Source: Paenibacillus hexagrammi
GTDB taxonomy: Bacteria; Bacillota; Bacilli; Paenibacillales; NBRC-103111
Assembly (NCBI RefSeq): GCF_021513275.1
Contig: NZ_CP090978.1
Location: forward strand, 2,542,001 to 2,606,000
DNA: 64,000 bases
Direction of reading: 5' to 3'
The notes beneath the pieces are model-generated. The model saw only the letters and a list, made by a program, of their open reading frames with translations, was not told the origin of the DNA and made no database searches. Of this stretch, positions 30,392 to 55,782 are shown one piece after another; position 1 is the first letter of the stretch; each line of letters begins with the position of its first letter. The position numbers and the translations under genes are program-made.

Positions 30392-31368
30392 TTAATCTTT
30401 TATAATAACTTTTTGAAATGCGATACGTTCCCTTTTCCATGTGTAGGTGATATAAAGTTCAAGTCCGTTGGCAATAATGGCCGGATAGGAATATTGCTTC
30501 TCTCCTTCATCCAACAGCAGCTCGCTCCCCCAAGTTAGGCCATTATCCTTGGAAATCCGTATCACGAGCGGTGTTCTCGGACCTTTCTTTTTGCCGGGCT
30601 CCGGACGCGTCGGATTAAAAACTAATGCCAACATCCCATTTTCAAGCTTCACCAGGTCGATTCCGCTGTTATTGTTGGGCAGATCTGTAGGATAGGCCTC
30701 ACACCACGTTCTCCCCCGTCCGACGAGTCACTACGGTAAATCGCACCTTCTGTGCTGCGGGTGAGCATATGAACAATCCCCGGTGCCGATTCCCATAGGG
30801 TGGGTTGAATGATACCTTTCCCTGTAAACTTGTCGCGATTCAGCGGAACGGTTTCGCTGCGGGTCCACGTCTCACCTCCGTCGAACGAAAGGTCCACGAA
30901 AGCGTCCCAAGCTGGTTCTATCGACGCAGGAGCAGCTATAGTGCCGTCTTGCAGTGTAATCGGCTTATTTTTTACCGGCCCTCTTCCTCCTTGATCGCCT
31001 TCAACCAATGGAATAGGCGTCGTCCATGTGATACCTTCGTCCGACGAACGCATGACCATCGTGCTCCACTCGGCGATGTCAGCGCCTACTTTATAATATA
31101 GACATAACACACCGTCCGCCTTGCGAAAAAGTACGGGATTCCAATGAGGAATGTGGTCCATATCGGCTGTTTTTACAGGAGGGCTCCATTTGCCGTCTAC
31201 TCTGCGCGAGGTCCAGATCGCGACATCTCCGGCTTTTTCCTTCGTTCCTCCGAACCAAGCAGCGATGATATTTCCCCCGGACAGCAGCTCCAAAGTAGAA
31301 GCATGACAGCTCAAAAAAGGTCTATCTTCCGCAAAAATAAATTCTTTGATTCGATCGGCATACCTCAT
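30392..31368 (-). CDS. BNR-repeat sialidase-family (GH33-like) exo-glycosidase, copy 2, one frameshift
   Basis: Two frames join into about 325 residues. Motifs: CHASTLELLSGGNIIAAWFGG at the start, Asp boxes SSDEGITWT, SFDGGETWT, SDGG(R)TW and SKDNGLTWG. The break near 30710 lies in a run of five G; a sixth G restores DGGRTWCEAYPTDLPNNN. ATG at 31368 follows AAGGAG, which sits inside the end of the upstream GH95 gene. It is a diverged paralogue of the gene at 27023-28090. Two such enzymes could separate Dha and Kdo side chains of RG-II, but this is inference from context. Confidence 0.75.
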
Positions 31369-31370
31369 GA

Positions 31371-33750: not shown

Positions 33751-33766
33751 CTTCTTCCCTCCAAGT

Positions 33767-36484
33767 CTACTCGTACAGCCAATCCAAGGTAGCGATGCCG
33801 TCGTTCTTGTGCTCGACATCGCGCGTACGGATGTCCAGTTCAGCCGGAATCACACCTAAGATCAGGTATGCTCCCTTACCGAAATCGAGCGTATGCCTTC
33901 CAGCTTCATATAGAAACGTATGGACGTTCACGGATGGGTAGGCATACAGACGAAGCCCTTTACGCAATACTGGTGCATACCCGCCGCGGTCGTCGGCATG
34001 CGTGTTTTCTTCCAAGCTTGGGACTTGCAGCCATTGCTCATCCTTTGAGTTGAAATAGCCGATCAGCACTTTCGACGGGCGCTCCAGCTCAATATCGACC
34101 GTCAAACCTGACAATCCCGCTTGCCTTTGACTGAACCGGATTCCGGTTAATCCTTGTAGCTCCTCCGCGCAGCCGACAATGTGAATGTCACCGTCGGTGA
34201 ACACTTCCGCCTCTTTTTCCACTCGGTATTTTTCAGCATAATCAGACAGTATTTTAAAAGGAGCCTCTTCCCATCGAACGATCGGAGCCTGACGATTTTT
34301 CAGAGCTTCGGGCAACAAGCCAGACTTAAGTTCCTGCAAATGAGTGCGGAAGGAGTGCAGCTCCGCAGTATACACCGGCAAGCATGCGGTCCAATGCCTG
34401 AAATCGAGTCCGCCCCGTATCGGTACTTTCCGCTGCGGCGTCTGCATACTGTTCGCGTATAAGTACCTCGTTTCTGTAAGAACCGTCAGCTCCCTGTAAG
34501 CGTTTAAACTTTGCTCCAACTGTTCAGCCGCTTCTTCCAGCAGATCGAGACGGTTAAAATACTCCCCTTTGACTGTATGCTTATACGTTAAAATGAAGAT
34601 CGCCGCCCGTATTTTATGAACATACGCGTCTACCATAAGGCTAATGGCTTTCATATCGTCAGCCAAACGCTCAAATTCTTCTTGATTGCGAGATACGTGA
34701 CTGCGTGCGCGTCCAATCGCTTGCACCGCTTGACGCGCATGCCTGAGGACATCGTCAATGATATCAGTCGGCGTCTCACCGACGTGCGGCTCTCCGCCCA
34801 TTTCTTTAAGAATATACGCCTCCAACCGTTCGCCTTGGGGTGATTGGGATTCCCACAGATCCGGCCATGGCATATGACGTTCGGGGTTGGTGAGCTGACT
34901 CATCGTCATACCGAGACTCATCGTTTGGCGGTTGCCTTCGGTGATGCCGAATCGGCGCAATAGCTTAGGAGCACACTCGCCTGATGCCTCGTATGCGTCC
35001 AATACGGCTTCACCGGCTTCCCGGCTGCCGTAACGCTTGGCAAGTGTCTCGATCCAGTAATGGCGTTCAGCTTCCGGATCCCGATCCGGGTTCCAGGCAT
35101 AGCGAAACCATGCCGCAAACCAAATCCAGTCGCGGTCCAGCTGCCGCAGACGCGGTACTGTTTTATCCGGCGCGTAGGGCCAATCCCAGAAAAACAAGGG
35201 ATACAGGTGCAGACCGCTTACTTTCAAACGGTATTTGGCCGCCTGCATGCATTTTTGAATAAATGAAGGAGCTCCGTAACGGAATGGCTCCAGATTAGCC
35301 AATATGTGCACGTTCACAATATGAACCGTTTCAAGGGAACCAAGACGGTTATGGGTCTCCTGCCACTTGCCGCGCGGTGTGTAAGTCGTCAATGATTCGC
35401 CGTTGTACTTGGCCTCCGTATACAAATTCGGATACAATGGCAGTGCCGCTTCGATGACTTTTTGCGGTTCGATGGCATGCGAACGAAGAATAATCGGCGG
35501 CTTTTCCTTCACTTTTGACTCCTGCAGTCCTTCCAATAGCCCGGCAAGTATCGTTTCATTAAACCATTCCACCCCGTAAATTTGTCCTTGTAAAACTTCG
35601 CCCAGGCAAATCATCATTCCGACATTAGGAAACGATTGGACAAATGCGGAGATCGATTTCTTGTAGTAATCCCTCGTGATTGGCAGCGGCTTCGGTTGAT
35701 GCAACTTCAAGCCGTGCTTTTCGGCAAACGGCAGCGGAATGTGAATGTTGTAAAATTTTACGACGACCCATATTCCCCGTTTGTCGGCTTCTTCCGTGAG
35801 GTATCTGAATGTCTTTACATTAAGTTCAAATTCTTCTTCCGAGACCTCAAGAGCTTCCGGATAGTCAGCCAGCTTGACCAGGGATGAGAACGGATGCCCG
35901 GACCATAGGTAAACCACGTTACACCGCTGCTCTACCATCATGTCGAGAAAATCCGTCCACAAAGCGCGATCGTAGAACCAAGGAAAGCGTTCCGGCGTGA
36001 TTGGATATTCATACGTCTGACGCGGCGGTTCAACCGTTGTTTTCTGGAGACCGATTGCCGGTCCTCGAAGAGCAAATTGCGGTGCATCGCCGTAAGCAAT
36101 ATCGTCAGGCAGCTCCCCGTTAGATCGAATTCTTCGTGCCAGCTCTAAGCAGCCGTACAAGACGCCAGAATCACTCCCTCCTGAAACTGTCGTTAACTTC
36201 CCCGGACAAGAAGCGATATAATACCCTTCTCCCTCAGGAGCCTCCGTGTGATACAACAATACATCACGCTCTTCCAAACGCTGCAGCAATTCCGATTCTA
36301 CGCGGTTTCCCGCAAAAATTTTTAGTCCCGGCGCCAATCTATAGTTATCCCAGGTCCAAGACGCTTCTGCTTGATGTACGGTATACCCGCAATCTTCTAG
36401 GGCTTGAGCGAGTTGGCTAAGTCCGAACTCCACCCGCGGTGCGCAATGGCGTTCGAAGCCTATCGTAACAGTTTTGGTTGTCAT
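33767..36484 (-). CDS. Putative large glycosidase with GH20/GH67-type N-terminal domain, 905 residues
   Basis: Intact. The N-terminal domain ends in SGGSDSGVLYGCLELARRIR, the hallmark of the small alpha/beta domain that precedes the TIM barrel in GH20, GH67 and GH84 enzymes. A barrel follows (FALRGPAIGLQKT, FLDMMVEQRCNVVYLWSGHP, IWVVVKFYNIHIPLPF, MMICLGEVLQGQIYG), then a long helical region and a C-terminal beta domain (GIRFSQRQAGLSGLTVDIEL). The ICLGEV Glu is a candidate catalytic residue. No signal peptide. Its ATG overlaps the GH29 stop as ATGA. I cannot assign a GH family; a uronidase acting on RG-II (GH138-like) is one idea, held loosely. Confidence 0.55.
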   Translation of the reverse strand: MTTKTVTIGFERHCAPRVEFGLSQLAQALEDCGYTVHQAEASWTWDNYRLAPGLKIFAGNRVESELLQRLEERDVLLYHTEAPEGEGYYIASCPGKLTTVSGGSDSGVLYGCLELARRIRSNGELPDDIAYGDAPQFALRGPAIGLQKTTVEPPRQTYEYPITPERFPWFYDRALWTDFLDMMVEQRCNVVYLWSGHPFSSLVKLADYPEALEVSEEEFELNVKTFRYLTEEADKRGIWVVVKFYNIHIPLPFAEKHGLKLHQPKPLPITRDYYKKSISAFVQSFPNVGMMICLGEVLQGQIYGVEWFNETILAGLLEGLQESKVKEKPPIILRSHAIEPQKVIEAALPLYPNLYTEAKYNGESLTTYTPRGKWQETHNRLGSLETVHIVNVHILANLEPFRYGAPSFIQKCMQAAKYRLKVSGLHLYPLFFWDWPYAPDKTVPRLRQLDRDWIWFAAWFRYAWNPDRDPEAERHYWIETLAKRYGSREAGEAVLDAYEASGECAPKLLRRFGITEGNRQTMSLGMTMSQLTNPERHMPWPDLWESQSPQGERLEAYILKEMGGEPHVGETPTDIIDDVLRHARQAVQAIGRARSHVSRNQEEFERLADDMKAISLMVDAYVHKIRAAIFILTYKHTVKGEYFNRLDLLEEAAEQLEQSLNAYRELTVLTETRYLYANSMQTPQRKVPIRGGLDFRHWTACLPVYTAELHSFRTHLQELKSGLLPEALKNRQAPIVRWEEAPFKILSDYAEKYRVEKEAEVFTDGDIHIVGCAEELQGLTGIRFSQRQAGLSGLTVDIELERPSKVLIGYFNSKDEQWLQVPSLEENTHADDRGGYAPVLRKGLRLYAYPSVNVHTFLYEAGRHTLDFGKGAYLILGVIPAELDIRTRDVEHKNDGIATLDWLYE

Positions 36485-37803
36485 CTCTGCGCGGGCCCTC
36501 CTTTCAAAAACAATTCAATGACCGGAACCGTAACATCCGGTTTTTTCACCGGGAGCGATAGGACCAGTGTGCTTTCATCCCTGCCTTCTTTGTACGCTCC
36601 ATTCTCGATGCCGCTCTCCACAAAACCTTGCTTAAATCGAATTTCAGAGGCATCGTTTAGCAGCTGCGCATATTCCACTTGTCCCGCCATACCTTGCAGA
36701 TGAATGCTTTTAAACGGCCAGCTGTACACGTGCACATACAATCGGTTTAGTGAAGGATTATAGGTTAGACGACAATCTTGCGGACATCGGATTGATTCCG
36801 GCGCTTGTGTACAACCATAGATTGACCGGCTGTGCCGCCTCATCCATTCGCCGATTCCCTTCAAACGATCCATGGTACGTTCGTCAAATTCGCCGCGACC
36901 GGTAGGCCCGACGTTCAAAAGCAGATTGCCCCCCTTGCTGACGACATCAATCAGCATTTTAACCAGCATATCCACACTTTTCCATGACTCCTCATCGCGG
37001 TAATATCCCCAGGACCCGCTGAACGTATGAGGCGTCTCCCAAACAACACGTTTACCGTCAACTTGAACCCATTTGGTCGGCAAATATTGCTCAGGCGTCG
37101 TAATATCTCCGCCGATTTGCAGACGATCATTCAGCAAAATATTCGGCTTCAGCTTACGGATCAGCTTAATCAACTCCTCACTGCCCCAGTCTTCCTTCCC
37201 TTTGCCGGATAAGCCGTTTTCCGCAGGAAATGAAAAATCGTAAAACAGCAAATCTACGTTGCCGTATTCGGTCATCAATTCCTTCGTTTGCCCAAATAAA
37301 TAATCGCGATAACGGGAAAAGTCCTTGTTAGCGTTATTGGAGACTGCTTCTGGATCAAAACGCAATGGATGCTTCGTATCTACGGTGTAATCCGGATGGT
37401 GCCAGTCAATCAGTGAGTGATAAAAACCGACTTTCATCCCCCGCTTACGAAACGCATCTGCCATCGGTCTGATCAAATCCCGACCGGCCGGTGTGTTCGG
37501 CGCTTTGTAATCGGTCAGCTTGGTGTCCCAAAGGCAAAATCCTTCATGGTGCTTAGTCGTCGCAACTACATATTTCATCCCGGCATCGAAAGCGAGTTGC
37601 GCCCACAACTCCGGATCGTACAAATCAGGGTCGAACTTATTAAAATATTTGTTTCGGTATGCTTCTCCGCTCAATCTCTCCCTTGACTGCAGCCATTCAT
37701 GTCTCGCCGCCAGCGAATACAGCCCCCAATGGATAAACAGTCCGAACCGGTCGTGTGTAAACCATCCGCTGTCACCAGTTGTTTGTTCTACTTCAAAGGT
37801 CAC
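36481..37803 (-). CDS. GH29 alpha-L-fucosidase
   Basis: 440 residues. GH29 signature segments: FTHDRFGLFIHWGLYSL, YVVATTKHHEGFCLW, MKVGFYHSLIDWHHPDY and the nucleophile Asp189 in GNVDLLFYDFSFP; GGNLLLNVGPTGRGE marks the end of the barrel, followed by a beta-sandwich. It retains L-fucose or related L-sugars by the double-displacement mechanism. No signal peptide. GTG start at 37803 with GAGGGGG upstream; stop overlaps the next gene. In an RG-II setting it would act on fucosyl or 2-O-methyl-fucosyl residues; fine specificity cannot be read. Confidence 0.9.
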   Translation of the reverse strand: MTFEVEQTTGDSGWFTHDRFGLFIHWGLYSLAARHEWLQSRERLSGEAYRNKYFNKFDPDLYDPELWAQLAFDAGMKYVVATTKHHEGFCLWDTKLTDYKAPNTPAGRDLIRPMADAFRKRGMKVGFYHSLIDWHHPDYTVDTKHPLRFDPEAVSNNANKDFSRYRDYLFGQTKELMTEYGNVDLLFYDFSFPAENGLSGKGKEDWGSEELIKLIRKLKPNILLNDRLQIGGDITTPEQYLPTKWVQVDGKRVVWETPHTFSGSWGYYRDEESWKSVDMLVKMLIDVVSKGGNLLLNVGPTGRGEFDERTMDRLKGIGEWMRRHSRSIYGCTQAPESIRCPQDCRLTYNPSLNRLYVHVYSWPFKSIHLQGMAGQVEYAQLLNDASEIRFKQGFVESGIENGAYKEGRDESTLVLSLPVKKPDVTVPVIELFLKGGPAQR

Positions 37804-37835: not shown

Positions 37836-38606
37836 TTAATCAAAAACCTGTAAAACCGACCTGCCTCCGTCTACGACGAGATTTGCGCCGGTAATAAATG
37901 CCGCTTCGTCGGAAGCAAGAAATAATGCAGCATTCGCTACGTCAGACGGCTTTCCCAGACGCCCGATCGGATGTACCGCGAGCATGGCGTTAAACTTTTT
38001 CTCCCGATCTGGAAAAGTCTGCATGTATGTTTCGGCTAGTGGTGTTTCAATATACCCCGGACTGATCGTATTTGCTCGTATACCCCTTCCGGCAAAATCG
38101 ACACATATACCTTGAGACATGGCCAGCATGCCCGCTTTTGAAGAGTGGTACGGAAAATGGTCCTTCTGTGTTCGGAAAACGTGGGTTGAACCAATGTTGA
38201 CGATACTGCCTTCACCTTCATCCAACATAAACGGAATCGCATGTTTGCAGCAGTACCAAGCGCTTTTCAAATTCAAATTCATGACTTGTTCCCACTGGGC
38301 ATCGTCAGCCGTCACAACGTTGGTCTGGCAGCTGACCCCGGCGTTATTGACGAGAACATGCAGACCTCCAAAATGCTGTTTGGCGGATTTCATCAATTTC
38401 AACACTTCAGCCTCAACGCGTATATCTGCGCGAATAAATATGGCTCTTCCACCTTGCTTGACGATCTCTTCGACAACCCTATTTCCTTCGTCGGAAATGT
38501 CATTGACAATGACTCCGGCACCCTCCTCGGCGAAGCGTTTGGCGATTGCCTCCCCGATTCCGGATGCCGCCCCGGTAACCACTGCTGTTTTTCGGTCCAG
38601 CCTCAT
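37836..38606 (-). CDS. Short-chain dehydrogenase/reductase (SDR)
   Basis: 256 residues of the classical SDR type. Cofactor motif TGAASGIG at 11-18, NNAG at 87-90, catalytic Ser140, Tyr153 and Lys157 (YHSSK), and the ISPGYIETP segment. Similar to glucose 1-dehydrogenase and 3-oxoacyl reductase-like proteins; fucose and other sugar dehydrogenases also belong here. It precedes GH29 by 32 bases, so oxidation of L-fucose or L-galactose released by the glycosidases is plausible. Substrate not determined. Confidence 0.85.
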   Translation of the reverse strand: MRLDRKTAVVTGAASGIGEAIAKRFAEEGAGVIVNDISDEGNRVVEEIVKQGGRAIFIRADIRVEAEVLKLMKSAKQHFGGLHVLVNNAGVSCQTNVVTADDAQWEQVMNLNLKSAWYCCKHAIPFMLDEGEGSIVNIGSTHVFRTQKDHFPYHSSKAGMLAMSQGICVDFAGRGIRANTISPGYIETPLAETYMQTFPDREKKFNAMLAVHPIGRLGKPSDVANAALFLASDEAAFITGANLVVDGGRSVLQVFD

Positions 38607-39718: not shown

Positions 39719-40362
39719 TCAAATTTTGACGCCAATATCCGATCCTACCACTGCCTTCAACCATGTCACAGCCATCAGCATATCTCCTAACGGATTCATA
39801 TGTACGCCATCTGTCGTTACATCTTTGCCGCTTTCATGCTGAATGAATTCAAGAAACGCTAAATGCGTGGGCACAAGAATCGCATCGTATTCTTTTGCCA
39901 GTCTGTTGACGATGTCTACGTAAGGTAGCAGCAACTGATTTCCCGTAGCATTTGGGTACTCCTTAATGATTGTCGGCTGCATAAGGATTGCTCGACAACC
40001 GGGTACTTGCTTCAACTTTTCGAGCAAGTTACGGTATATCGATTCATATCTGTCGGGATATACTTGTTCCGCATCTGCAGAATCTAATTGACGCCAAACG
40101 TCATTAATCCCAATGGAGATCGAAACCCATTGCGGCTGATGATCCAACACGTCGAGCGTCCATCTCTTTTCTAAATCGGTTACACGGTTACCGGACACGC
40201 CTTCATTGATGATTTTCAATCCCAGCTGCGGGTACATCGCCGTCAGATAATCATGAATCAGACGAACGTATCCTGATCCCAGCTTCAGCGGATCTTTTTT
40301 CTACCTTTATCGGTAATGCTGTCGCCGATAAAAACAATTTTCTCCTTCGCTCTAAACGTCAC
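39719..40362 (-). CDS. SGNH/GDSL-family esterase, one frameshift
   Basis: About 215 residues once AAAAAA near 40295 is read as seven A. Block I is VFIGDSITDKGR with the nucleophile Ser, block II Gly/Asn in INEGVSGNRVTDL, block III in SISIGINDVWRQL, and block V TTDGVHMNPLGDML with the Asp-x-x-His pair. GTG at 40362 follows AAGGAGGGG. No signal peptide. Rhamnogalacturonan acetyl-esterases belong to this superfamily, so deacetylation of pectic fragments is a reasonable guess. Array B begins directly after its stop. Confidence 0.8.
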
Positions 40363-40391
40363 GATAACCCCTCCTTATTGAATCACATTGC

Positions 40392-41315
40392 TTATACAGC
40401 CAGATGCTGCTTAACCAACCGGTACATCGCATCAAGCTGCTCCACCTCATGCTTATGATTATTTTTAAAACCACCGGCATCCCTCGAACGGCAGTACAGC
40501 AAAATCGGAAGTCCTCTGGTGCGCAGATGGTATTTCGCGTTGACGGGATACATTTGAAGCTCCACCAAAGACGCAGCTCCAAGGAAAGACTGTATCGTTT
40601 CCGCATGAATCTGTTCAGTGCTCCAAAGCTCAGTCAAACGAACATACAGATCGGGATGGAAATTTGCCATCACACCGCTGAATCCAGCCGCTCCCAAGCG
40701 CAGCGAGGCTAGCAGGGTAGCTGAATTGGCATTGAATATTTGGAGTGGACTTCCTTTTACTGCCTCTATTTTTGCTGCGATTTGCTGCAAATCGCAGCTT
40801 GTATCCTTTAAAAAAGAAAACCTGCCCGTATCCGCGCACTTTTTCAACAATTGCGGGGTTAAGAGCCTTTTGTACGGATAAGGACACTTCGTAAATACCG
40901 AACGGCACACCTGGAACACGGTCAATCAACTGCGTGACCCGGTCGAACCAAATTTCATCCGACTCTACTTCACCGGCCAATCGATTGCTGACTAACACAA
41001 CCGCTTTAACCCCCGTCTCTGCCATTCGCTGCACTTCTTCCACCTGTTCATCAAAAGAAACCGATATATGTCCTGAAGCAATCACCGGAACCCGCCCGGC
41101 GGCTTTTTCCGTGACAAACTGAGCGATACGCACTCTTTCCTCCAAGCTCAAATAAAACATTTCACTTGATTGACAAACGGCAAACAGCCCATGTACACCT
41201 TGGTCGATGTACCAATCAACCAACTGCTCCAACGCCCCGTAATCCACTTCGCCAGCATCGGTGAAAGGGGTCACCATGGCGTGGGCCAAACCCCATTCGG
41301 AATGTTCGCATCCAT
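40392..41315 (-). CDS. DapA-family (class I) aldolase/lyase, copy 1, two frameshifts
   Basis: The TIM-barrel lyase reads GVWPT(A)MVTPFTDAGEVDY, GVHGLFAVCQSSEMFYLSLEER, PVIASGHIS, PFGIYECPYPYKRLL and FSFLKDTSCD, the last with the Schiff-base Lys; the Tyr is in GIYE. Breaks: near 41277 (one base missing between CCCACG and CCATGG) and near 40895 (one G too many before TGTCCTTATCCG). ATG at 41315 lies inside array D. The corrected length is about 307. This family cleaves 2-keto-3-deoxy sugar acids to pyruvate and an aldehyde, or dehydrates them. With PdxA2 and the DUF1537 kinase nearby, cleavage of Dha or Kdo is proposed. Confidence 0.8.
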
Positions 41316-41690
41316 GGCTCCACTTCCTCTCGAATTATTCATCTATTGCACCATATCTTCTCGTATTATTCACATCGATTGCCTCATCCTCGCGCGAAAT
41401 GTTCGCATCCATGGCTCCACTTCCTCTCGAATTATTCATTTATTGCACCATATCTTCTCGTATTATTCACATCGATTGCCTCATCCTCGCGCGAAATGTT
41501 CGCACCCATGGCTCCACTTCCTCTCGGATTATTCATCTATTGCTCCATATCTTCTCGTATTAATCACATCAATTGCTCCATCACTCTCGGACTGTTCGCA
41601 ACCACGGCTCCATCTCCTCTCGGGTTGCTCACTACTATTATTCTTCATCCCCATTCGAAATGTTCACATCGATTGCTTCATCCCCGTTCG
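41303..41690. repeat. Tandem array D: four 97-bp units copied from the 5' end of the DapA-like gene
   Basis: TGTTCGCA landmarks at 41303, 41400, 41497 and 41593 give a period of 97 (last 96). Each unit is itself three variants of a 32-bp element. On the minus strand each unit repeats the ribosome-site and start-codon region of copy 1 (GAGGAAGTGGAGCCATGG). The array overlaps the first codons of copy 1 and the last codons of copy 2. Confidence 0.85.
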
Positions 41691-42584
41691 GCTCACCCCC
41701 GTTACGCCCTCTTCCAAATATTGATCCAATACCTTTTTCAATTCTTCTTTAGCAGCCGGATGCAGCTGTTGCACTGGAAGACGAGGCTGTCCCGCAGGCA
41801 GCCCAATCATGCACATAGCTTCCTTTAATACGGACGGCAGTGTTCCGTGAAAACGCGCTGCGCAAAGCTCGGAGTTTCTGTTGCGATTGCTCCGCTTCCA
41901 TTGGCTTCCCTTGCATCCACAAATCATAAATGGACTTAACCGTCTCTGGAAAAACGTTTGCCATTGCCGCAATCGCACCACAGCCGCCGGCCATTAAAGT
42001 CGGCAATATTAATGAATCCGTACCCGCCAGCACGGAAAAATCCGGTCCTGACACTTCTAAATATTGCAAAATTGTATCGAAGCTGCCGCTGCTGTCTTTG
42101 ATGCCTACTATGCCCGAAACCTCGCTCAGTTCCTTCACGGTTTTGGGATGCAGGGAGTTACCTGTCCTTGCAGGAATGTTATACAAAAGGATGGGAAGCC
42201 CTGTCGCATCAGCCACCGCTCGAAAATGTCCCAGCAGCTCCTGCTGTGTAAACGTTAAAAAATATGGCGTAATGACCGATAAAGCATCGGCCCCTAGCCG
42301 TTCCAATTCCACAGCCAATCGAACAGTTTCCCATGTTCCTTCGCAACCGGCTCCAACATAAACTGGAACTCGTCCCTGCGCTTCCTCTATGACTATCCGT
42401 GCTGCCTGCAGCTTTTCCTCAAAGGTTAGCGAAAAAACTCCCCGTTTGTGCCCAAACAAAATAAACCGTGCACGCCCGCGTTGATTAGTCTGCGGGTCAA
42501 CATACGCAATGCCATTTCATCAAGCTGTTGGTTCATGTCGAAAGGCGTAACCATAGCAGGAATAATACCTGATGGCTTGAGCAT
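41664..42584 (-). CDS. DapA-family (class I) aldolase/lyase, copy 2, two frameshifts
   Basis: MLKPSGIIPAMVTPFD, GVHGLFCLGTNGEFF, YVGAGCEGTWETV, LPILLYNIPARTGNS and VGIKDSSGSFD cover the family's core, including the catalytic Tyr and Schiff-base Lys; IAAMANVFPE follows. Breaks: near 42436 (six T, seven needed, giving GEFFSLTFEEK) and near 41858 (four T, three needed, giving SAFHGTLPSVLKEAM). Corrected length is about 306. ATG at 42584 follows AAGGAGTG. It is only distantly similar to copy 1, so the two may act on different 2-keto-3-deoxy acids. Located after PdxA2 in the same direction. Confidence 0.82.
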
Positions 42585-42672
42585 GTGATCACTCCTTCTC
42601 TCCTTCTTACGAAGTACATTTGATTGACAACTATAACCGTACAACGAAGGGCTCTCCATAAGAGTCAAAAAC

Positions 42673-43685
42673 TTACCTCAGCTCTCCGAACCGTCTAGGC
42701 GCAAGCTCAACGGCAGAGCGAATGGCTTCCAGCATACTTCGTTCATCCGCCAAACCAGTACCGGCGATGTCGAATGCTGTCCCATGATCAACTGAGGTGC
42801 GAACGATCCCTCCATTCAATCCGACCGTGATATTGACGCCGGATTCCCAATTCCCATCACTTTGACTGGCACGTGTCCTTGATCATGGTAGCACGCCACG
42901 ACGATATCAAAATCCCCGCGCACCGCGCGATAAAACAGCGTATCCGCCGGATAAGGTCCGGTGACGTCAACGCCTTCCTCCGCAGCACGCATGATACTGG
43001 GAATCAACTTCTCTTCTTCCTCGCCGTTGCCGAATAGTCCGTTCTCGCCCGCGTGCGGATTGATGCCGCAAACCGCGATTCGCGGTCGTTTATTCCCAGC
43101 TCTCCGCAGTGTTTCATGCGCCAGTTTTATCACCTTGTATGTCCGTTCGGGATTAATTGCTGCGATCGCCTGAACAAGTCCTAGATGCGTAGTCAAATGA
43201 ATCACCTTCAGCTTCGGAGCTGAAAGCATCATAGAATAATCCTCAGTGCCGGTTAAACTAGCCAATATTTCGGTATGGCCCGGGTACAGATGTCCGCCTT
43301 TGTGCAAAGCTTCTTTATTTAGCGGTGCGGTGCAGATCGCATCGATTTCTCTACGAAGCGCTAAATCCACCGCCTTCTCAACGAATTTATAGGCGGCGTG
43401 TCCAGCTTTACCGCTAACCTGTCCATGTGAAAGGTCCGCCGGTAGCAAATGCATGTTCAAGCAATCGATACGGCCATACTTGTATAGCCCGTCTGAGGGC
43501 TCCGTCACGCCGCATACAGATGCCGAACCGCCGACGATGCGGAGCGCGCGTTCTAACTGAACCGGATCGCCAATGACCAATGGACGGCATATTTCATAAA
43601 CTTGTTCGTTTTGCAGCGCTTTCACTATGACTTCCGGTCCGATGCCGCAGGCATCTCCCATCGTGATTCCAATGATAGGCTTCAT
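42673..43685 (-). CDS. pdxA2: PdxA2-type 4-phospho-sugar-acid dehydrogenase, one frameshift
   Basis: About 337 residues after restoring one G to the GGG run near 42850 (VMGIG joined to [21 protein letters not shown]). PdxA family marks: [27 protein letters not shown], the metal-binding His in [14 protein letters not shown] and [11 protein letters not shown]. In the biosynthetic role PdxA makes vitamin B6, but beside a DUF1537 kinase the PdxA2 form oxidises 4-phospho-D-threonate or 4-phospho-D-erythronate, which then decarboxylates to dihydroxyacetone phosphate. ATGA overlap with the kinase stop shows tight coupling. Confidence 0.85.
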
Positions 43686-45010
43686 CTCATACCCATCCCT
43701 CTATGTAATAATTCCAGAGCTTTCACCAGTGCATGATCGGAACCAAAGCCTCCCGCCTTCGTAACCGCGGGCAGCGGCTGATCCATCACGATCAGACCGG
43801 CCGGAATGCCTCTTTCCACCTCGTCGTACAATCGGAATTCATGGATTCGCAGAGAGTTTCCTATATGCCTGGCGGTATCGCCTCCGGTCAAAACAATCCC
43901 TCCAATTCGGACTCGTTTGATCAATCGAGAGACGACTTCTCCCAATGCGCACGCAATCTCGTCACTGACTTGCTGATCATTCAACTCATATTCGCTGCCG
44001 ACCTCTTGAGCAATCCGAATATCTTCATCTTCTCCAGATGAATAGAGCACCGTATGAACATTTTGGCGTAAAGCCAGATCTGCTTGCTCTACCGCATTCA
44101 TGATTTCTCTTTCCCGATCGGGGTGTCCGGTTAGGAGCCGGTAAGATTCTGCTTTTACACCCTGAATATGCGGAAGCTGCAACAGAATGTCCAATTGACA
44201 GCGTGAACGAGAGCTAACGCTGCCGACGACGGTAAGAATCGGTTCAGCGATTTTTTCAGGTACAAGCGTTTCACTTGGCCGTGAGATAGGAAGATCCACG
44301 GAGAAATGGCCGCACAAATGACTAGACAAATGATCGGCTAAACCGGCTGAACCCGCCCATACGACTGTATAATCCGTCTCTACCATGAAAGCGACTAGAC
44401 GCTTCAGATCGCTATCTTCAGCCGAATCTGCAACCAAGTAGCGGACCCCTCGTGATTCGCCGTTTTGCAAGAACGAAACCAATGCACCTTTCCCTTCCTC
44501 CATAATGGCAGAAGGAATGATTTCGACTGAGCGCTTCGTCTGCTTGCGCAGCAAATCGGGAATGTACGGTTCGATTACCGGTGTTTTCGGGTCGCGGGCG
44601 AACTCCGTATCTTGCAGCGGTATACCATTCACGTAGAGCATTCCTTGACGAACAAGCCTGCCCATTTCAGGGTAGGCAGGTGCAATGATAATAAAATCGG
44701 GACGAATTGTATCATATAGAGCGTCGAGCTCCGCCCCTATATTTCCGCGCAGAGTGGAGTCTATTTTTTTTAGCACAACATCTGCTCCAAAAGCTTGAGC
44801 TTTCAGTGACGCCATTGCAGTTCGGATGTAAGCGGATTTGGCGTCTAGCGAACGGCTGTCGGTATCAAGGACAAGCACATCTCTACCGGTTAGCTTATCC
44901 AAGCCTGCTGTAAGTTGAAAAAGCACGGATACATGCATCCCATGTTTGGCAAACTGCACCCCAGCATCTCCCGCTCCCGTAAAATCATCGGCAATGACAG
45001 CAACTTTCAT
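43682..45010 (-). CDS. Four-carbon acid sugar kinase, DUF1537 family
   Basis: 442 residues, intact. The N-terminal sugar-binding domain has VIADDFTGAGDAGVQFAKHG and LVLDTDSRSLDAKSAY, then KKIDSTLRGNIGAELDALYD; the C-terminal nucleotide-binding domain has GGIVLTGGDTARHIGNSL. Family members phosphorylate D-threonate, L-threonate or D-erythronate at O4, or 3-oxo-tetronates. ATG at 45010 (MKVAVIADDF) follows GGAGG; a longer frame is less likely. Pairing with PdxA2 by ATGA overlap argues for a tetronate 4-kinase such as D-threonate kinase. Confidence 0.88.
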   Translation of the reverse strand: MKVAVIADDFTGAGDAGVQFAKHGMHVSVLFQLTAGLDKLTGRDVLVLDTDSRSLDAKSAYIRTAMASLKAQAFGADVVLKKIDSTLRGNIGAELDALYDTIRPDFIIIAPAYPEMGRLVRQGMLYVNGIPLQDTEFARDPKTPVIEPYIPDLLRKQTKRSVEIIPSAIMEEGKGALVSFLQNGESRGVRYLVADSAEDSDLKRLVAFMVETDYTVVWAGSAGLADHLSSHLCGHFSVDLPISRPSETLVPEKIAEPILTVVGSVSSRSRCQLDILLQLPHIQGVKAESYRLLTGHPDREREIMNAVEQADLALRQNVHTVLYSSGEDEDIRIAQEVGSEYELNDQQVSDEIACALGEVVSRLIKRVRIGGIVLTGGDTARHIGNSLRIHEFRLYDEVERGIPAGLIVMDQPLPAVTKAGGFGSDHALVKALELLHRGMGMR

Positions 45011-45035
45011 CAAGACGCCCTCCTTTTCCACTCAT

Positions 45036-46214
45036 TCAGGGAAGCAGTTTACGGTATATCGACTTCATCGCATTCAAATCCATTGGCTTCGGATTGTTAT
45101 GTAAAAGCCTCGTCACCTTAGAGGCCGCAACCGCTATATCGTCAACATCCGCTTCATGAACACCGAACACACGCAAATCCTGCGGGATGCGCATCTCATC
45201 CGTCCACTCATAAATCCGGCGAATAACCGATTCGGATGCAGCTGTACTCTCCCCGCTCCCTTCATGCACCCCCATCACTCGGGCAACATGACCGAGGCGC
45301 CCGTGAATAGCATCCATATTATAAGCCATCACGTGCGGCAGCAGCATCGAATTGGCAACGCCGTGGGATATGTTGAATTTTCCTCCTAGTGGATAGGCCA
45401 GCGCATGCACGGCTGCTGTACCGGCTGAGCTCAGGGCCATGCCGCCATACATGGAACCGAGCAGCATATTCTCTCTCGCCTCCAAATGTGATCCTTCATG
45501 ATACGCATCAAGCAAGTTGCCTGCAATTAATCGGATCGATTCGAGAGCGAACATGTCGCTGATTGGATTGGCCTTATTGGATATATACGATTCCAGCGCA
45601 TGGGTAAACGCATCCATGCCCGTTGCGGCTGTTATGCTTTGCGGCAAGCTTACTGTAAGCACAGGATCAATGATGACCAACATGGGCAGCAGATGCCTGC
45701 TAATGATCCCGACTTTCAGTTCCTGCTCGGGAATGGTAACTATGGAGTTGGGCGTCACTTCGGAACCGGTGCCTGAGGTCGTTGGAATCAATACAGTCGG
45801 AATCCCGGGCCTGGACACGAGATCGGCACCAACAAGACTCCTTACATCCACTGGGTTGGTCAACAAGACGGAAAATAGTTTCGTAGCGTCAAGAACACTG
45901 CCCCCTCCGATTCCGATCAACAAATCAACAGGATCAGCTGCGATTAAACCGAACACTTCGCGAATATTAGTAATGGTCGGTTCCGGCTTCACATCTGTGA
46001 AACATCTGCTGGCAATTCCCGCTTGCTTCAATTCATCCGCAATACGATCAATGACCCCCATCGCCTTCAACGATGGTTGCGTAACAATCACAGCATGCCG
46101 GAAGTTTCCTTGCAAGTTAATCTGGGGGATCAGCTCTGTAATCGCGTTAGGTCCGGCAATTATGTTGCCGGCTGTCTGAAACTTATAGGGCACAAATCCA
46201 TGATTAGCCTTCAC
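45036..46214 (-). CDS. Iron-containing alcohol dehydrogenase
   Basis: About 392 residues. NAD-binding GIGGGSVLDATK, the PTTSGTGSEVTPNSIVT loop, and metal ligands in TGMDAFTHALESYIS, AVHALAYPLGG and NISHGVANSMLLPH. GTG at 46214 has GGGGGAGCTGAA upstream and was preferred to the longer frame. It is the first gene of the block with the DUF1537 kinase, PdxA2 and two DapA-like aldolases, with 25 bases to the kinase. I infer reduction of the four-carbon aldehyde acid made by aldolase cleavage of Dha to a tetronate; it could instead reduce lactaldehyde or oxidise a polyol. Confidence 0.85.
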   Translation of the reverse strand: MKANHGFVPYKFQTAGNIIAGPNAITELIPQINLQGNFRHAVIVTQPSLKAMGVIDRIADELKQAGIASRCFTDVKPEPTITNIREVFGLIAADPVDLLIGIGGGSVLDATKLFSVLLTNPVDVRSLVGADLVSRPGIPTVLIPTTSGTGSEVTPNSIVTIPEQELKVGIISRHLLPMLVIIDPVLTVSLPQSITAATGMDAFTHALESYISNKANPISDMFALESIRLIAGNLLDAYHEGSHLEARENMLLGSMYGGMALSSAGTAAVHALAYPLGGKFNISHGVANSMLLPHVMAYNMDAIHGRLGHVARVMGVHEGSGESTAASESVIRRIYEWTDEMRIPQDLRVFGVHEADVDDIAVAASKVTRLLHNNPKPMDLNAMKSIYRKLLP

Positions 46215-46417
46215 TTCAGCTCCCCCTTCCGTGCAATTTGGCCTCAATTCCCCCTCATCCTACGCCCGCCTATCCTTGATGTCAATGCAACCGGGTTGCG
46301 AAGATCGTATCGACCTATATTTCGGATACAATCCCCCACACAGCCATGAATCGGTTAATTGTACCCTGAATAATGTATCCGGTATAAAAAGCTCAAAAAG
46401 ACAAGGAGCGTGCCCTT

Positions 46418-47434
46418 TTGAATATTCAGCCTTATCTCACTCCATATAAACTAGGAAGTCCGGTACTCACAGGCTCCGGGGTCCCCGGTCATTTTGATGA
46501 ACGCGCCGTAGATTGTCCATATGTTTTTCAGCATAACGATCAGTTTTACATGATGTATGTGGGATTTGACGGTATCGGTTATCAAACGGCTTTGGCGGTA
46601 AGCCATGACTTAATAAACTGGGTGCATAAAGGAGTCATTCTAAAACGAAATGAAACCACAGGCTGGGATTCCGTCAATATCGCCGGCACATGGATTTTGA
46701 AAGAAAATCAATTGGACGCCCCGCCGGTCCTGAAAAAATGGGACGATAAATATTGGCTGGTGTATCACGCCTATCCCGAAACCGGTTATGAAGAAGGCTC
46801 CGCAAAAATCGGAATTGCTTGGACGAAAGACGAACAACTGCTGGAATGGCACCGCTGCCCCGATCCGATTCTAGTCCCCGAAGAAGGCGCAGATTGGGAA
46901 AAAGGCGGCCTGTACAAGGAATGTCTTGTTGAGCATGAAGGCAAGTTTTATTTGTTCTACAATGCTAAAAACAAAAATAAAGGAAGATGGGTCGAACAAA
47001 CAGGTGTCGCTTTCTCTACAGATTTGAAGCAGTGGAACAGATATGAGCATAACCCTGTGCTTTTCGTTACACCGGAAGGATGGGACTCCGGCTTTGTCAG
47101 CGATCCCTGCGTGCTGCATGACCGAGACCGCAACCAGTGGGTCATGTATTACTTCGGCTACGATTACAAAAAAGCGCAAGAAGGCATCGCGCTCTCCAGT
47201 GATCTTTTGAATTGGGAAAAGTATCCGAACCCGATCATCAATGTTGGCGAGGAAGGCAGTATTGACTCCATTTTTGCCCACAAGCCCTCTGTTATTATGC
47301 ATCAGGGCGTGCTTTACCACTTCTACTGCTCTTGCAGACCGTACCGGGAAGGCGATCCGACCAAAAACTACGGCAAAGAGTTCAGAACGATCAGCGTGGC
47401 CGCCTCGCAGCCTATTTTTGCTTCAACCTGTTGA
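46418..47434 (+). CDS. Five-bladed beta-propeller glycoside hydrolase (GH43/GH137-like)
   Basis: 338 residues with repeated blade motifs: DCPYVFQHNDQFYMMYVGFDG, ALAVSHDLINWVHKG, KKWDDKYWLVYHAYPETG, CLVEHEGKFYLFYNAKN, DPCVLHDRDRNQWVMYYFGYD and IALSSDLLNWEKYPNP, ending with KPSVIMHQGVLYHFYC. This is the GH32/GH43/GH62/GH130/GH137 fold. TTG at 46418 is used, with AAGGAG upstream. First gene of the plus-strand operon; the GH78 rhamnosidase follows after 18 bases. RG-II chain B has terminal L-arabinofuranose on rhamnose, removed by the propeller family GH137 before a GH78 acts, so that order is suggestive. Exact family not certain. Confidence 0.65.
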   Translation: MNIQPYLTPYKLGSPVLTGSGVPGHFDERAVDCPYVFQHNDQFYMMYVGFDGIGYQTALAVSHDLINWVHKGVILKRNETTGWDSVNIAGTWILKENQLDAPPVLKKWDDKYWLVYHAYPETGYEEGSAKIGIAWTKDEQLLEWHRCPDPILVPEEGADWEKGGLYKECLVEHEGKFYLFYNAKNKNKGRWVEQTGVAFSTDLKQWNRYEHNPVLFVTPEGWDSGFVSDPCVLHDRDRNQWVMYYFGYDYKKAQEGIALSSDLLNWEKYPNPIINVGEEGSIDSIFAHKPSVIMHQGVLYHFYCSCRPYREGDPTKNYGKEFRTISVAASQPIFASTC

Positions 47435-47452: not shown

Positions 47453-50131
47453 ATGCAAGTGGATGAAATGTTTGTGGAAAGCAAAATTTGCCCGCTCGGG
47501 GTCGATGCCCTTTGGCCGGCATTTGCTTGGAGTTTTACAGACTCATCGGAGCGCATGCAGATGCAGACGGCCTATCGGATCATCGTATCCCGTGACGAGT
47601 CGAACTTAAAACGCAACTTCGGCGAAATATGGGACAGCGGAAAGATCTTCAGTAAGAAAAACGTACATATTTTATATAAAGGCTCCTCACTTCAATCACG
47701 TGCTCGGTATTATTGGAAGGTTCAGATTTGGGATCAAAAGAAACGCATGACCGAAAGCCCGGTTTCCTGGTGGGAAATGGGCCTTGTTCATGAAAGCGAT
47801 TGGTCTGCTATGTGGATCGGGGAATCCGAAAGCATCTCCGGTGAGCGAACGGCTATGCCTCTTTTCAGGCATGCATTCAATCTTAACAAGCCAATTGCCA
47901 GTGCAAGAGCATATGTAAGCGGACTCGGACATTACGAGCTCCGTATAAACGGCAAGAAAGTCGGTGACAGCGTTCTTGAGCCCGGTTGGACACACTATGA
48001 CAAAACGTGCCTCTACTGCGTTCACGATGTGACAGAAGTTCTGAACGAAGGTCCCAACGCCATCGGCGTCATGCTGGGGAACGGTTTTTTCCATGTTGCA
48101 GGCGGCCGTTATACGAAATTCAAGCATTCCTTCGGAACACCCCGATGTTTGATTCAATTGGAAGTCACATTTACCGACGGAGATTACATTCAAATCGGAA
48201 GCGGTAGAAACTGGCATACCGCACCTGGACCTATTACCTTTTCAAGTATATACGGCGGGGAAGATTACGACTCACGCCGACTGCAAGCGGATTGGGACCA
48301 GCCGAGATTTGCTCCTAATGAACAATGGAAGCAAGCTGTCGAAGTAAAGCGCCCTGCTGGAAAACTGAAGGCACAGGCGATTACTCCTTTAAAAGTAATG
48401 GAAACATTCCAGCCTGCTCACATTACTCAGCCTGTTCCCGGAGTGTATGTCGTTGATTTCGGGCAAAACTTTTCAGGCTGGGTTGAGATTTGCGCAAAAG
48501 GTCGAAGCGGCTCGCAAATTACTCTATCCCCTGCTGAAGTAGTAAAAGATACAGGAACGGTCAATCAAAAGTGGACCGGCTCCCCTTACAAGTTTACCTT
48601 TATCTTGAACGGAGACGACGAAGAAGAAACATGGGCACCACGCTTCAGCTATTACGGGTTTCGTTACTTACAGATCGAAGGAGCCATTTTCCCTGACTCT
48701 GCAAGCAGCGATACGGATATTCCCGTTCTTCTCCGCGTCGAAGGCCAAATGATTTACCCGGACACGAAAGTTCGCGGAAATTTCCTCAGTTCAGATCTGA
48801 TGCTGAATCGTACGCACGACCTCATTAACCGGGCCATCCTCAGCAACATGAAAAGCATATTCACGGATTGCCCGCATCGGGAAAAACTGGGATGGCTGGA
48901 ACAGGTCCATTTGATGGGTCCTTCCGTTGCCTTTAATTATGATGCCGAGTCCCTGTTCATCAAAACGATGGAAGATATTAGGGACGCACAACTTCCTGAC
49001 GGGATGGTTCCGACGACGGCTCCGGAATATGTCGTGTTTTCCGATCAATGGCGCTGTTTTCGCGACTCCGTATCTTGGGGCGCTGCATACGTGCTTGTCG
49101 GCTGGAATCTATTGCACACGTACGGCAACAGCCGAATTTTGACCGAGCATTATGAGGGGATGAAAGCTTATATTGACTATTTGACCAACAGTTCCGATCG
49201 TTTGATTATTCAAACCGGTCTTGGAGATTGGTACGATGTTGGCGACAGCACTCCGGGCTTTGTACAAAATACGCCGGTTTCTCATACAGAAACCGCTATG
49301 TTTTATCATATCGTCGACGTGTTTGCGCAGATCGCGAGTCTCTTGAATTACAGTGAGGACGCTGTCAAATATGGGCTGCTGCGTGAAGATATCAAGTCAT
49401 CATTTAATGAAACGTTCTTCGACCTTGAGACACATCAATATGCCACCGGCAGTCAGACATCTAACGCTATGCCGCTTGTATTGGGGCTTGTTCAAGAACC
49501 CTTTCGAGAAAAAGTTCTCTCTCATCTTATAAAAGACATTCATCTTCGCGGGTATCATACAACCGCCGGCGATATCGGCCATCGCTATGTTCTGCTAGCA
49601 CTTGCGCAAAATGGCCGTTCTGACATCATTTTTGAAATGACCCGTCAAACCGGTCATCCCAGCTATGGATATCAACTCGCACATGGGGCAACCACATTGA
49701 CTGAAGCATGGGACGGTCCGACTGTCGGCAAATCACAGAACCATTTCATGCTCGGACATTTGGAAGAATGGCTCTATAGCGGGCTAGCCGGAATCCAGTT
49801 CCGATATGACACCGATTTCGAAAGTTATCAAATCTCCATTCAACCTGCGCTGCCTGCAGGCTTGGACGAAGTGACAGCCGAATATCTGCTTCTCGCCGGG
49901 CGTATTCATGTGTCGTGGAAACGAAGTGGGCCTAATCGATTGAATCTTCGTGTGACCATCCCGGCTAACTGTGTTGCGGATATTTATGTTCCCACTGCAT
50001 CTGTGAATTCGGTATTGGAAAGCGGAGAGCCAATTGAGACCGCCCGGAACCTTGAAGTCTTGCGTACTCAATCCGGTTATGTGGCTGTGCATGCGGGTTC
50101 GGGCACCTATCATTTTGAAAGCATCGTATGA
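47453..50131 (+). CDS. GH78 alpha-L-rhamnosidase
   Basis: 892 residues, intact, with the full GH78 architecture: N-terminal fibronectin-like domain (TAYRIIVSRDESNLKRN), jelly-roll domain (ASARAYVSGLGHYELRINGKK, LEPGWTHYDKTCLY), a beta domain, the alpha/alpha barrel with FTDCPHREKLGWLEQVHLM (from about residue 471) and GYQLAHGATTLTEAWDG, and a C-terminal beta domain (VTAEYLLLAGRIHVSWKR). The acidic residues of the DCPHREK and TLTEAW motifs are the expected catalytic groups. No signal peptide. Removes alpha-L-rhamnose from pectic oligosaccharides. Ribosome site AAAGGAG upstream. Confidence 0.93.
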   Translation: MQVDEMFVESKICPLGVDALWPAFAWSFTDSSERMQMQTAYRIIVSRDESNLKRNFGEIWDSGKIFSKKNVHILYKGSSLQSRARYYWKVQIWDQKKRMTESPVSWWEMGLVHESDWSAMWIGESESISGERTAMPLFRHAFNLNKPIASARAYVSGLGHYELRINGKKVGDSVLEPGWTHYDKTCLYCVHDVTEVLNEGPNAIGVMLGNGFFHVAGGRYTKFKHSFGTPRCLIQLEVTFTDGDYIQIGSGRNWHTAPGPITFSSIYGGEDYDSRRLQADWDQPRFAPNEQWKQAVEVKRPAGKLKAQAITPLKVMETFQPAHITQPVPGVYVVDFGQNFSGWVEICAKGRSGSQITLSPAEVVKDTGTVNQKWTGSPYKFTFILNGDDEEETWAPRFSYYGFRYLQIEGAIFPDSASSDTDIPVLLRVEGQMIYPDTKVRGNFLSSDLMLNRTHDLINRAILSNMKSIFTDCPHREKLGWLEQVHLMGPSVAFNYDAESLFIKTMEDIRDAQLPDGMVPTTAPEYVVFSDQWRCFRDSVSWGAAYVLVGWNLLHTYGNSRILTEHYEGMKAYIDYLTNSSDRLIIQTGLGDWYDVGDSTPGFVQNTPVSHTETAMFYHIVDVFAQIASLLNYSEDAVKYGLLREDIKSSFNETFFDLETHQYATGSQTSNAMPLVLGLVQEPFREKVLSHLIKDIHLRGYHTTAGDIGHRYVLLALAQNGRSDIIFEMTRQTGHPSYGYQLAHGATTLTEAWDGPTVGKSQNHFMLGHLEEWLYSGLAGIQFRYDTDFESYQISIQPALPAGLDEVTAEYLLLAGRIHVSWKRSGPNRLNLRVTIPANCVADIYVPTASVNSVLESGEPIETARNLEVLRTQSGYVAVHAGSGTYHFESIV

Positions 50132-54923: not shown

Positions 54924-54924
54924 T

Positions 54925-55770: not shown

Positions 55771-55782
55771 AAATCCTCCTTC

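What the first reader, a model, noticed from the sequence alone, without database searches (positions are those of the whole stretch)
39719..46214. Possible complete route from Dha to pyruvate and DHAP
DapA-type aldolases, Fe-ADH, DUF1537 kinase and PdxA2 are clustered. Dha is 3-deoxy-D-lyxo-2-heptulosaric acid. Cleavage between C3 and C4 yields pyruvate plus 2,3-dihydroxy-4-oxobutanoate; following the lyxo configuration, the C4 acid formed after reduction of the aldehyde is D-threonate. D-threonate kinase (DUF1537) and PdxA2 are known to turn D-threonate into DHAP and CO2. Stereochemistry and gene content agree. GH33-like enzymes at 27-31 kb could release Dha. I know of no described pathway with this exact logic.
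Basis: inference. Interest (0 to 1): 0.93.

Follow-up and report, generated by a model that had tools for sequence, protein, structure and literature searches.

The report
Bacterial recycling route for Dha sugar
A block of genes beside pectin-cutting enzymes in a Paenibacillus-type bacterium, found also in three bacterial phyla and often next to a sialidase-like gene, likely breaks down Dha, a rare sugar acid of plant cell walls, into pyruvate and a glycolysis intermediate, a route we did not find described.

Summary
On the minus strand lie Fe-ADH, DUF1537 kinase, a PdxA-type dehydrogenase and two unlike DapA-type aldolases. PdxA and both aldolase genes are split by frame breaks in this assembly; a close relative has them intact. 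Around them is an apparent rhamnogalacturonan-II (RG-II) locus: a close homologue of BPa0997 (GH138; E 4e-214), a GH142-like protein, two apiosidase-like, two GH95, GH29, GH78, and two sialidase-fold proteins.

DapA1 is the conserved core. Of the best 80 DapA1 loci from named genomes, 54 carry DUF1537 and PdxA within 10 kb; of these, 47 carry Fe-ADH and 34 a sialidase-fold gene (7 named families, 3 phyla). Of 29 DUF1537-PdxA loci without DapA1, none has the sialidase-fold gene. In a Pectobacterium cluster, kinase and dehydrogenase pass NCBI's D-threonate kinase and D-threonate 4-phosphate dehydrogenase cut-offs (the window's own do not). Of 99 related genomes, 15 of 18 with the GH138 homologue have DapA1, against 5 of 81 without.

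So the route Dha to pyruvate + D-threuronate, D-threonate, DHAP + CO2 is well supported as a prediction. No enzyme was assayed, and 13 of 18 module loci lacking both sialidase-fold and RG-II genes carry another, unexplained front end.

The parts
45036..46247 (-). Fe-ADH; predicted reductase of D-threuronate to D-threonate
   Evidence: Pfam Fe-ADH; 84% identical to L034; below every NCBIfam equivalog cut-off (best lactaldehyde reductase 303 of 523; 4-hydroxybutyrate dehydrogenase 228 of 500)
43682..45031 (-). DUF1537 four-carbon acid sugar kinase; predicted D-threonate kinase
42691..43685 (-). PdxA-type dehydrogenase; predicted 4-phospho-D-threonate dehydrogenase (PdxA2); frame break near its C-terminal end
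   Evidence: Pfam PdxA; two pieces 85% and 96% identical to L034; only PdxA of the genome
41703..42590 (-). DapA1, class I aldolase of the DHDPS family; predicted Dha aldolase; in three pieces in this assembly
   Evidence: intact relatives aligned; Schiff-base Lys present in 64 of 64 module loci
40398..41292 (-). DapA2, divergent DHDPS-family protein; role open (Kdo or another RG-II acid is possible); in two pieces
39722..40362 (-). GDSL esterase/lipase, two pieces
37836..38606 (-). SDR oxidoreductase
36481..37803 (-). GH29 alpha-L-fucosidase
   Evidence: Pfam Alpha_L_fucos 288 bits
33767..36484 (-). homologue of BPa0997 (GH138 by recall), RG-II-specific enzyme
   Evidence: 6hzf E 3.8e-214 over residues 89-904
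31576..33819 (-). GH95, in two frames
30649..31374 (-). second sialidase-fold protein, incomplete; candidate Kdo hydrolase
   Evidence: Pfam BNR_2 159 bits
28128..30311 (-). GH142-like; would remove the terminal beta-L-arabinofuranose that caps Dha in RG-II chain D
   Evidence: 5mqr residues 651-1101, E 7.9e-17; GH142 and BT_1020 are recalled labels
27023..28117 (-). sialidase-fold (GH33-like) hydrolase of the kind linked to the module in other genomes; predicted Dha hydrolase
18802..22447 (-). ABC sugar importer: two permeases and a binding protein
15858..18761 (-). two apiosidase-like (GH140-type) proteins
   Evidence: Pfam Apiosidase
13495..15861 (-). GH95
46418..47434 (+). GH43/GH32-like protein
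47453..50131 (+). GH78 alpha-L-rhamnosidase
52436..57216 (-). FGGY kinase, transketolase in two subunits, FucI_C-type isomerase: candidate apiose route
   Evidence: the link to apiose is recalled, not tested

Best explanation
[quoted passage not shown] Shown here by sequence: the enzyme families, their conserved clustering, and the linkage to a sialidase-fold gene and to RG-II enzymes. Known from others: D-threonate kinase plus 4-phospho-D-threonate dehydrogenase make DHAP from D-threonate. Inferred and untested: that the sialidase-fold enzyme takes Dha, that DapA1 cleaves Dha, that Fe-ADH reduces D-threuronate, and that the window's own kinase prefers D-threonate. In other bacteria the same module comes with a sodium:solute symporter and, in some, a YhcH-type anomerase, so it looks like a counterpart of the nan (sialic acid) operon for a plant sugar. 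The order in RG-II chain D (a terminal Araf caps Dha) means that a beta-L-arabinofuranosidase, here probably the GH142-like protein, would act first.
For: Clustering of Fe-ADH, DUF1537, PdxA and DapA, kept in same-genus relatives L034-L037 with the RG-II genes. All 39 DUF1537 places that one search found outside the window genome were fetched: 10 of 39 have DapA1 beside DUF1537 and PdxA, and 10 of these 10 have Fe-ADH, against 5 of the 29 without DapA1. The best 80 DapA1 loci of named genomes: 54 have DUF1537 + PdxA, 47 of 54 Fe-ADH, 34 of 54 a sialidase-fold gene; the same 34 are found with the window protein alone as query. The sialidase-fold gene is in 0 of the 29 DUF1537-PdxA loci without DapA1, and, leaving out loci with RG-II enzymes, in 34 of 52 module loci against 1 of 20 DapA1-type loci without kinase and PdxA. 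The label is scattered on the DapA1 tree: at least 10 changes on well-supported branches, quick method. L127 (Pectobacterium polonicum): PdxA-DUF1537 divergent from Fe-ADH-DapA-symporter-sialidase fold-YhcH-SDR; its kinase scores 612 against a cut-off of 450 for D-threonate kinase, its PdxA 683 against 583 for D-threonate 4-phosphate dehydrogenase; its kinase gives 856 bits to 4xfm/4xgj, a P. atrosepticum DUF1537 protein (title). 15 of 18 genomes with the GH138 homologue have DapA1 against 5 of 81 without; 13 of the 15 within 10 kb. DapA1 keeps the Lys and Tyr of class I aldolases of this family in 64 of 64 module loci and a basic residue (45 R, 19 K) where DHDPS has the Arg of its YNVPSRT motif. 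Published: DHDPS-family NanA and human NPL cleave Kdo (PMC13220900, passages); YhcH opens Neu5Ac for its aldolase (PMC8141875, passages); D-threonate kinase + 4-phospho-D-threonate dehydrogenase let E. coli with a permease grow on D-threonate via DHAP (PMC10079672, passages); in plants Dha is found only in RG-II (PMC12168206, passages).
Against: No enzyme assay exists. The window's kinase and PdxA pieces stay below the D-threonate cut-offs, as do those of the Bacillus cluster L095. The intact DapA1 of L034 passes the lysine-pathway dapA model (246 against 206). The RG-II Dha hydrolase that I recall from Bacteroides (first half of BT_1020, entry 5mqr) is not among the 57 PDB sequences matched by the profile of the window's sialidase-fold family. 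20 of 54 module loci lack the sialidase-fold gene within 10 kb; 18 of these 20 lack RG-II enzymes too, and 13 of the 18 carry a D-2-hydroxyacid dehydrogenase and/or MFS transporter instead. In the 10 family loci only 1 has the sialidase-fold gene in the stretch fetched; 5 of the 10 are RG-II loci cut at 20 kb, and 4 have neither. Of 8 loci with DapA1 but no kinase or PdxA nearby, 8 genomes hold a DUF1537 gene, so the kinase must act from elsewhere or not at all there. Position F112, unlike DHDPS, is shared with 17 of 20 non-module relatives and does not mark the module.
Confidence: 0.77

Rival explanations
1. The module serves another 2-keto-3-deoxy heptarate or a related free sugar acid imported by MFS or symporter; Dha is at most one of several inputs and D-threonate (or D-erythronate) remains the common product.
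For: 13 of 18 module loci without sialidase-fold and RG-II genes carry a D-2-hydroxyacid dehydrogenase and/or a D-galactonate-type MFS transporter; they lie among sialidase-linked members on the DapA1 tree.
Against: 34 of 54 module loci carry the sialidase-fold gene, four loci carry both front ends (L056, L083, L115, L129), and no other natural 2-keto-3-deoxy heptarate in a glycan is known to me (recall).
Confidence: 0.13
2. The aldolase and sialidase-fold enzyme serve Kdo, the other keto-deoxy sugar of RG-II, giving pyruvate and D-arabinose; kinase and PdxA2 handle unrelated D-threonate or D-erythronate.
For: DHDPS-family lyases NanA and human NPL cleave Kdo; RG-II holds Kdo; the window has two aldolases and two sialidase-fold proteins, so one pair could be for Kdo.
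Against: It does not explain why Fe-ADH, kinase and PdxA stay with DapA1: 47 of 54 loci have all. D-arabinose is no substrate class of DUF1537 kinases. DapA2, absent from L038 and the wider module set, is the better Kdo candidate.
Confidence: 0.06
3. Unrelated genes side by side: DapA1 is a lysine-pathway enzyme or sugar-acid aldolase, Fe-ADH a lactaldehyde reductase for fucose and rhamnose, and kinase plus PdxA2 an ordinary D-threonate or D-erythronate pair.
For: DapA1 of L034 passes the dapA model and the Fe-ADH scores best against lactaldehyde reductase, below cut-off; fucosidase and rhamnosidase genes lie nearby.
Against: The genome has two further intact DHDPS-family genes, 31-35% identical to DapA1; the four-gene association recurs in 12 named or unnamed family groups and is not what chance neighbours do.
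Confidence: 0.04

Closest known systems
D-threonate catabolism by DUF1537 kinase DtnK and PdxA2 (Zhang et al. 2016, cited in PMC10971088 and PMC7954711; original not held)
   Same: Kinase and dehydrogenase families; predicted last two steps to DHAP + CO2
   Different: Here an aldolase and an Fe-ADH stand in front and would make D-threonate inside the cell from Dha, rather than import it
nan operons for sialic acid (sialidase, transporter, YhcH/NanM anomerase, NanA lyase)
   Same: Sialidase-fold hydrolase, DHDPS-family lyase, and in other genomes symporter and YhcH-type protein
   Different: Reduction, C4-acid kinase and PdxA2 replace ManNAc kinase and epimerase; substrate predicted to be Dha
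RG-II degradation loci of Bacteroides thetaiotaomicron (Ndeh et al. 2017, recalled; not held)
   Same: GH138 homologue, GH142-like, GH140-type, GH95, GH78, GH29 and GH33-like enzymes
   Different: Single-protein Gram-positive layout with ABC importer; the recalled Bacteroides Dha hydrolase domain was not matched by sequence; no downstream Dha route found in the papers searched
Galactarate/glucarate route (5-keto-4-deoxyglucarate aldol cleavage to pyruvate and tartronate semialdehyde; recalled)
   Same: Same logic: keto-deoxy diacid cleaved to pyruvate and a semialdehyde acid that is then reduced and phosphorylated
   Different: C7 rather than C6 diacid; C4 rather than C3 product; DHDPS-type aldolase and DUF1537/PdxA2

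Membership tests
DUF1537 four-carbon acid sugar kinase | SBD_N plus NBD_C domains over Pfam cut-off | tested here: met
NCBIfam D-threonate kinase (NF047819) | Score of 450 bits or more | tested here: not met
   Window protein 325 bits, though its best model. The L127 kinase of the same module passes with 612
NCBIfam D-threonate 4-phosphate dehydrogenase (NF002891) | Score of 583 bits or more | tested here: not met
   Window piece (289 of about 339 aa) 284 bits; L127 protein passes with 683; L095 protein 349
PdxA of vitamin B6 synthesis | DXP-dependent pathway with PdxJ in the genome | tested here: not met
   No PdxJ match, PdxS present
DHDPS-family class I aldolase | Schiff-base Lys and catalytic Tyr | tested here: met
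   K166 and Y138 in 64 of 64 module loci; read in the intact relatives
Lysine-pathway DHDPS (DapA) | Arg of YNVPSRT and second Tyr of TPYY (recalled as DHDPS-specific) | tested here: inconclusive
   Arg or Lys kept in 64 of 64; second Tyr is Phe in 64 of 64; L034 DapA1 passes the dapA model
GH33 sialidase-type hydrolase | Six-bladed sialidase propeller | tested here: met
GH33 sialidase-type hydrolase | Arg triad, Tyr/Glu pair and Asp of the active site | tested here: inconclusive
   Invariant Arg, Tyr, Glu and Asp exist in A3, but no residue-level structural mapping was made; sequence alignments cover only the middle part
Dha hydrolase / Dha aldolase | Activity on Dha | not testable with these tools
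   Needs enzyme assays
RG-II degradation locus | RG-II-specific enzymes together (GH138, GH140-type, GH142-like) | tested here: met
   GH family labels recalled

The most novel reading that the evidence does not exclude
Bacteria of at least three phyla carry a dedicated Dha operon, a plant-sugar counterpart of the sialic-acid operon with its own sialidase-fold hydrolase, symporter, anomerase, lyase and reductase; D-threonate kinase and PdxA2 owe much of their spread to being its last two steps, so intracellular Dha cleavage is a main natural source of D-threonate.
Probability: 0.55. Interest if true: 0.86.

Novelty: new variant of a known kind. Interest (0 to 1): 0.8.

Why it matters
Dha is one of the strangest sugars of land-plant cell walls, and in the papers searched no route from free Dha into central metabolism appeared. 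If right, this gives every step a gene, explains where D-threonate, the substrate of the DUF1537 kinases, comes from inside cells, corrects aldolases now annotated as lysine-pathway DapA, and gives a gene marker for Dha use in plant-associated Pseudomonas, Erwinia, Pectobacterium, Bacillus and Paenibacillus. It also predicts a non-Bacteroides family of Dha hydrolases.

Tried and rejected
Papers Ndeh 2017, Zhang 2016 and Carter 2018: not held, so statements resting on them are marked recalled. Literature: (DUF1537 + threonate + PdxA2) found 0 papers; (RG-II + Dha + aldolase) found 4, none on this by title; two searches listed 25 of 52 and 15 of 25 papers, and none of those listed joins threonate with a Dha name (PMC4973674 holds threonate once and RG-II; not read). 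NCBI's D-threonate models do not call the window's own kinase or PdxA. I expected the Arg of the DHDPS motif to be strictly kept in the module; it is Lys in 19 of 64, so only 'basic' is claimed. F112 was tried as a marker and dropped (17 of 20 non-module relatives share it). Search for the recalled Bacteroides Dha hydrolase among profile matches of the sialidase-fold family: 5mqr is not among the 57 listed and not among the 50 rows of the structure comparison, which does not exclude a shared fold. The idea that lack of the kinase breaks the scheme in P. aceris and seven other loci was tested: 8 of 8 genomes hold a DUF1537 gene; where it lies was checked for P. aceris only (a different contig). 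The sialidase-fold profile was seeded with module loci; the unseeded single-sequence search gave the same 34 of 54, and tblastn gave the same single family hit L043. In one search a strict E of 1e-90 was used; looser thresholds were not tried.
Full report
What is there. The window is part of a 6.64 Mb genome in two contigs. On the minus strand, in the direction of reading, lie Fe-ADH, DUF1537 kinase, PdxA, a DHDPS-family protein (DapA1), a second one (DapA2) and a GDSL protein. DapA1, DapA2, PdxA and the GDSL gene are in pieces; tblastn with the proteins of the relative L034 shows where the frame changes. In L034 all are single open frames. Whether the breaks are sequencing indels or decay is open: of 6 stretches, 5 hold a homopolymer run of 4 or more, 4 one of 5 or more.

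The neighbourhood. The 905-residue protein at 33770-36484, without a Pfam match, is a close homologue of BPa0997 (E 3.8e-214), which I recall as GH138, an RG-II galacturonidase. 28131-30311 matches the second half of 5mqr (E 7.9e-17), which I recall as BT_1020, GH142. There are two apiosidase-like proteins and GH95, a second GH95, GH29 and two BNR_2 proteins, GH78, an ABC sugar importer, and an FGGY kinase, a two-part transketolase and an isomerase-like protein that fit the non-oxidative apiose route as I recall it. So the locus looks made for RG-II.

Conservation. DUF1537 was sought in 104 genomes of the family: 39 have it at E 1e-60 or better, 40 places in all. The 39 places outside this genome were all fetched (one twice, the longer stretch counted). 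10 of 39 have DapA1 with DUF1537 and PdxA; 10 of 10 also Fe-ADH. Of the 29 others, 5 have Fe-ADH and 0 the sialidase-fold gene. Four same-genus relatives (L034-L037) keep both aldolases and the RG-II genes; L038 keeps DapA1 but lacks DapA2.

Named genomes. 54 of 80 hold DUF1537 and PdxA within 10 kb, 47 of the 54 Fe-ADH, 34 of the 54 a protein of the family of the window's 27026-28117. These 34 are in Bacillaceae 10, Pseudomonadaceae 8, Paenibacillaceae 6, Erwiniaceae 4, Microbacteriaceae 2, Pectobacteriaceae 2, Azospirillaceae 1 and one unplaced Bacillota. Leaving out loci with RG-II enzymes: 34 of 52 module loci against 1 of 20 DapA1-type loci without kinase and PdxA. On a quick DapA1 tree the label needs 16 changes at least, 10 on well-supported branches; the tree has long branches and is a guide only. 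These counts treat related genomes as separate, so the Fisher values overstate significance.

The D-threonate link. The Pectobacterium polonicum locus L127 reads PdxA-DUF1537, then divergently Fe-ADH-DapA-symporter-BNR-YhcH/DUF386-SDR. Its kinase passes the NCBIfam D-threonate kinase model (612 of 450) and its PdxA the D-threonate 4-phosphate dehydrogenase model (683 of 583). The kinase gives 856 bits to PDB sequence 4xfm/4xgj, and titles 4xgj as a DUF1537 protein of P. atrosepticum (ECA3761); that D-threonate is bound in 4xfm is recalled. The window's own kinase has D-threonate kinase as best model but below cut-off (325 of 450), and so has the Bacillus one (323). [quoted passage not shown] coli grow on D-threonate via DHAP.

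The chemistry. Dha is a C7 keto-diacid with D-lyxo centres C4-C6. Aldol cleavage gives pyruvate and a C4 aldehyde acid of D-threo form; reduction gives D-threonate. DHDPS itself takes a C4 aldehyde acid (aspartate semialdehyde, recalled). DapA1 keeps Lys and Tyr of the active site in 64 of 64 module loci and a basic residue at the DHDPS Arg (45 R, 19 K), while YagE has Leu there. Among 20 non-module, non-RG-II relatives 12 have a basic residue, 8 N or T. Family lyases NanA and human NPL cleave Kdo (PMC13220900, passages). In RG-II chain D, Araf caps the acid (PMC12282258, passage), so a beta-L-arabinofuranosidase must act first; the GH142-like protein is the candidate.

RG-II link at genome level. 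In 99 related genomes (own included), 18 have the GH138 homologue at E 1e-100 and 20 DapA1 at E 1e-90; 15 have both, 3 only the former, 5 only the latter. In 13 of the 15 the two lie within 10 kb (G015 and G024 are the exceptions).

What does not fit. Six RG-II loci (L054, L062, L070, L081, L085, L089) have DapA1 without kinase and PdxA nearby; with L078 and L103, 8 of 8 such genomes hold DUF1537 somewhere. 20 of 54 module loci have no sialidase-fold gene within 10 kb; two of these are RG-II loci, and 13 of the other 18 have a D-2-hydroxyacid dehydrogenase and/or an MFS transporter, Pfam-confirmed in examples. Four loci have both kinds. I cannot say what that dehydrogenase does. DapA2 is unexplained; Kdo or aceric acid are guesses. 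Position F112 does not mark the module.

Not a B6 gene. The genome has one PdxA, in two pieces, PdxS and no PdxJ match. The lysine DapA role is open to two other intact DHDPS-family genes, 31-35% identical to DapA1.

Prior art. Searches searched open papers; among those listed none describes Dha catabolism to D-threonate. Most subscription papers are not held, so this is not proof of absence.

Verdict. All substrate claims need assays.

Noticed in passing
window 38780-39704: A tandem array of 8.1 copies of a 114-bp unit with inverted halves lies between the GDSL and SDR genes; related copies (68-74% identical) lie at C1:2508102-2509022 of the same genome.
   Followed up: partly
window 41301-41622: A second array, 3.3 copies of a 97-bp unit, lies between the two aldolase genes.
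   Followed up: partly
window 52436-58416: FGGY kinase, two-part transketolase, FucI_C-type isomerase and LacI regulator: a candidate D-apiose route beside the apiosidase-like genes (apiose link recalled).
   Followed up: partly
L063:14436-16766, L073, L069, L125 and others: A D-2-hydroxyacid dehydrogenase plus galactonate-type MFS transporter replaces the sialidase-fold gene in many module loci; its substrate is unknown.
   Followed up: partly
G000:C1:2501795-2502519: A second DUF1537 gene of the genome is also in two frames, which fits frequent indels in this assembly.
   Followed up: no
L127:13494-14767: YhcH/DUF386 protein and an SDR next to the sialidase-fold gene: possible Dha anomerase and accessory reductase.
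   Followed up: partly
window 50153-52219: 689-residue protein with no Pfam match, weak GH65-type similarity (E 7e-5), 82% identical in L034: a possible undescribed RG-II enzyme.
   Followed up: no
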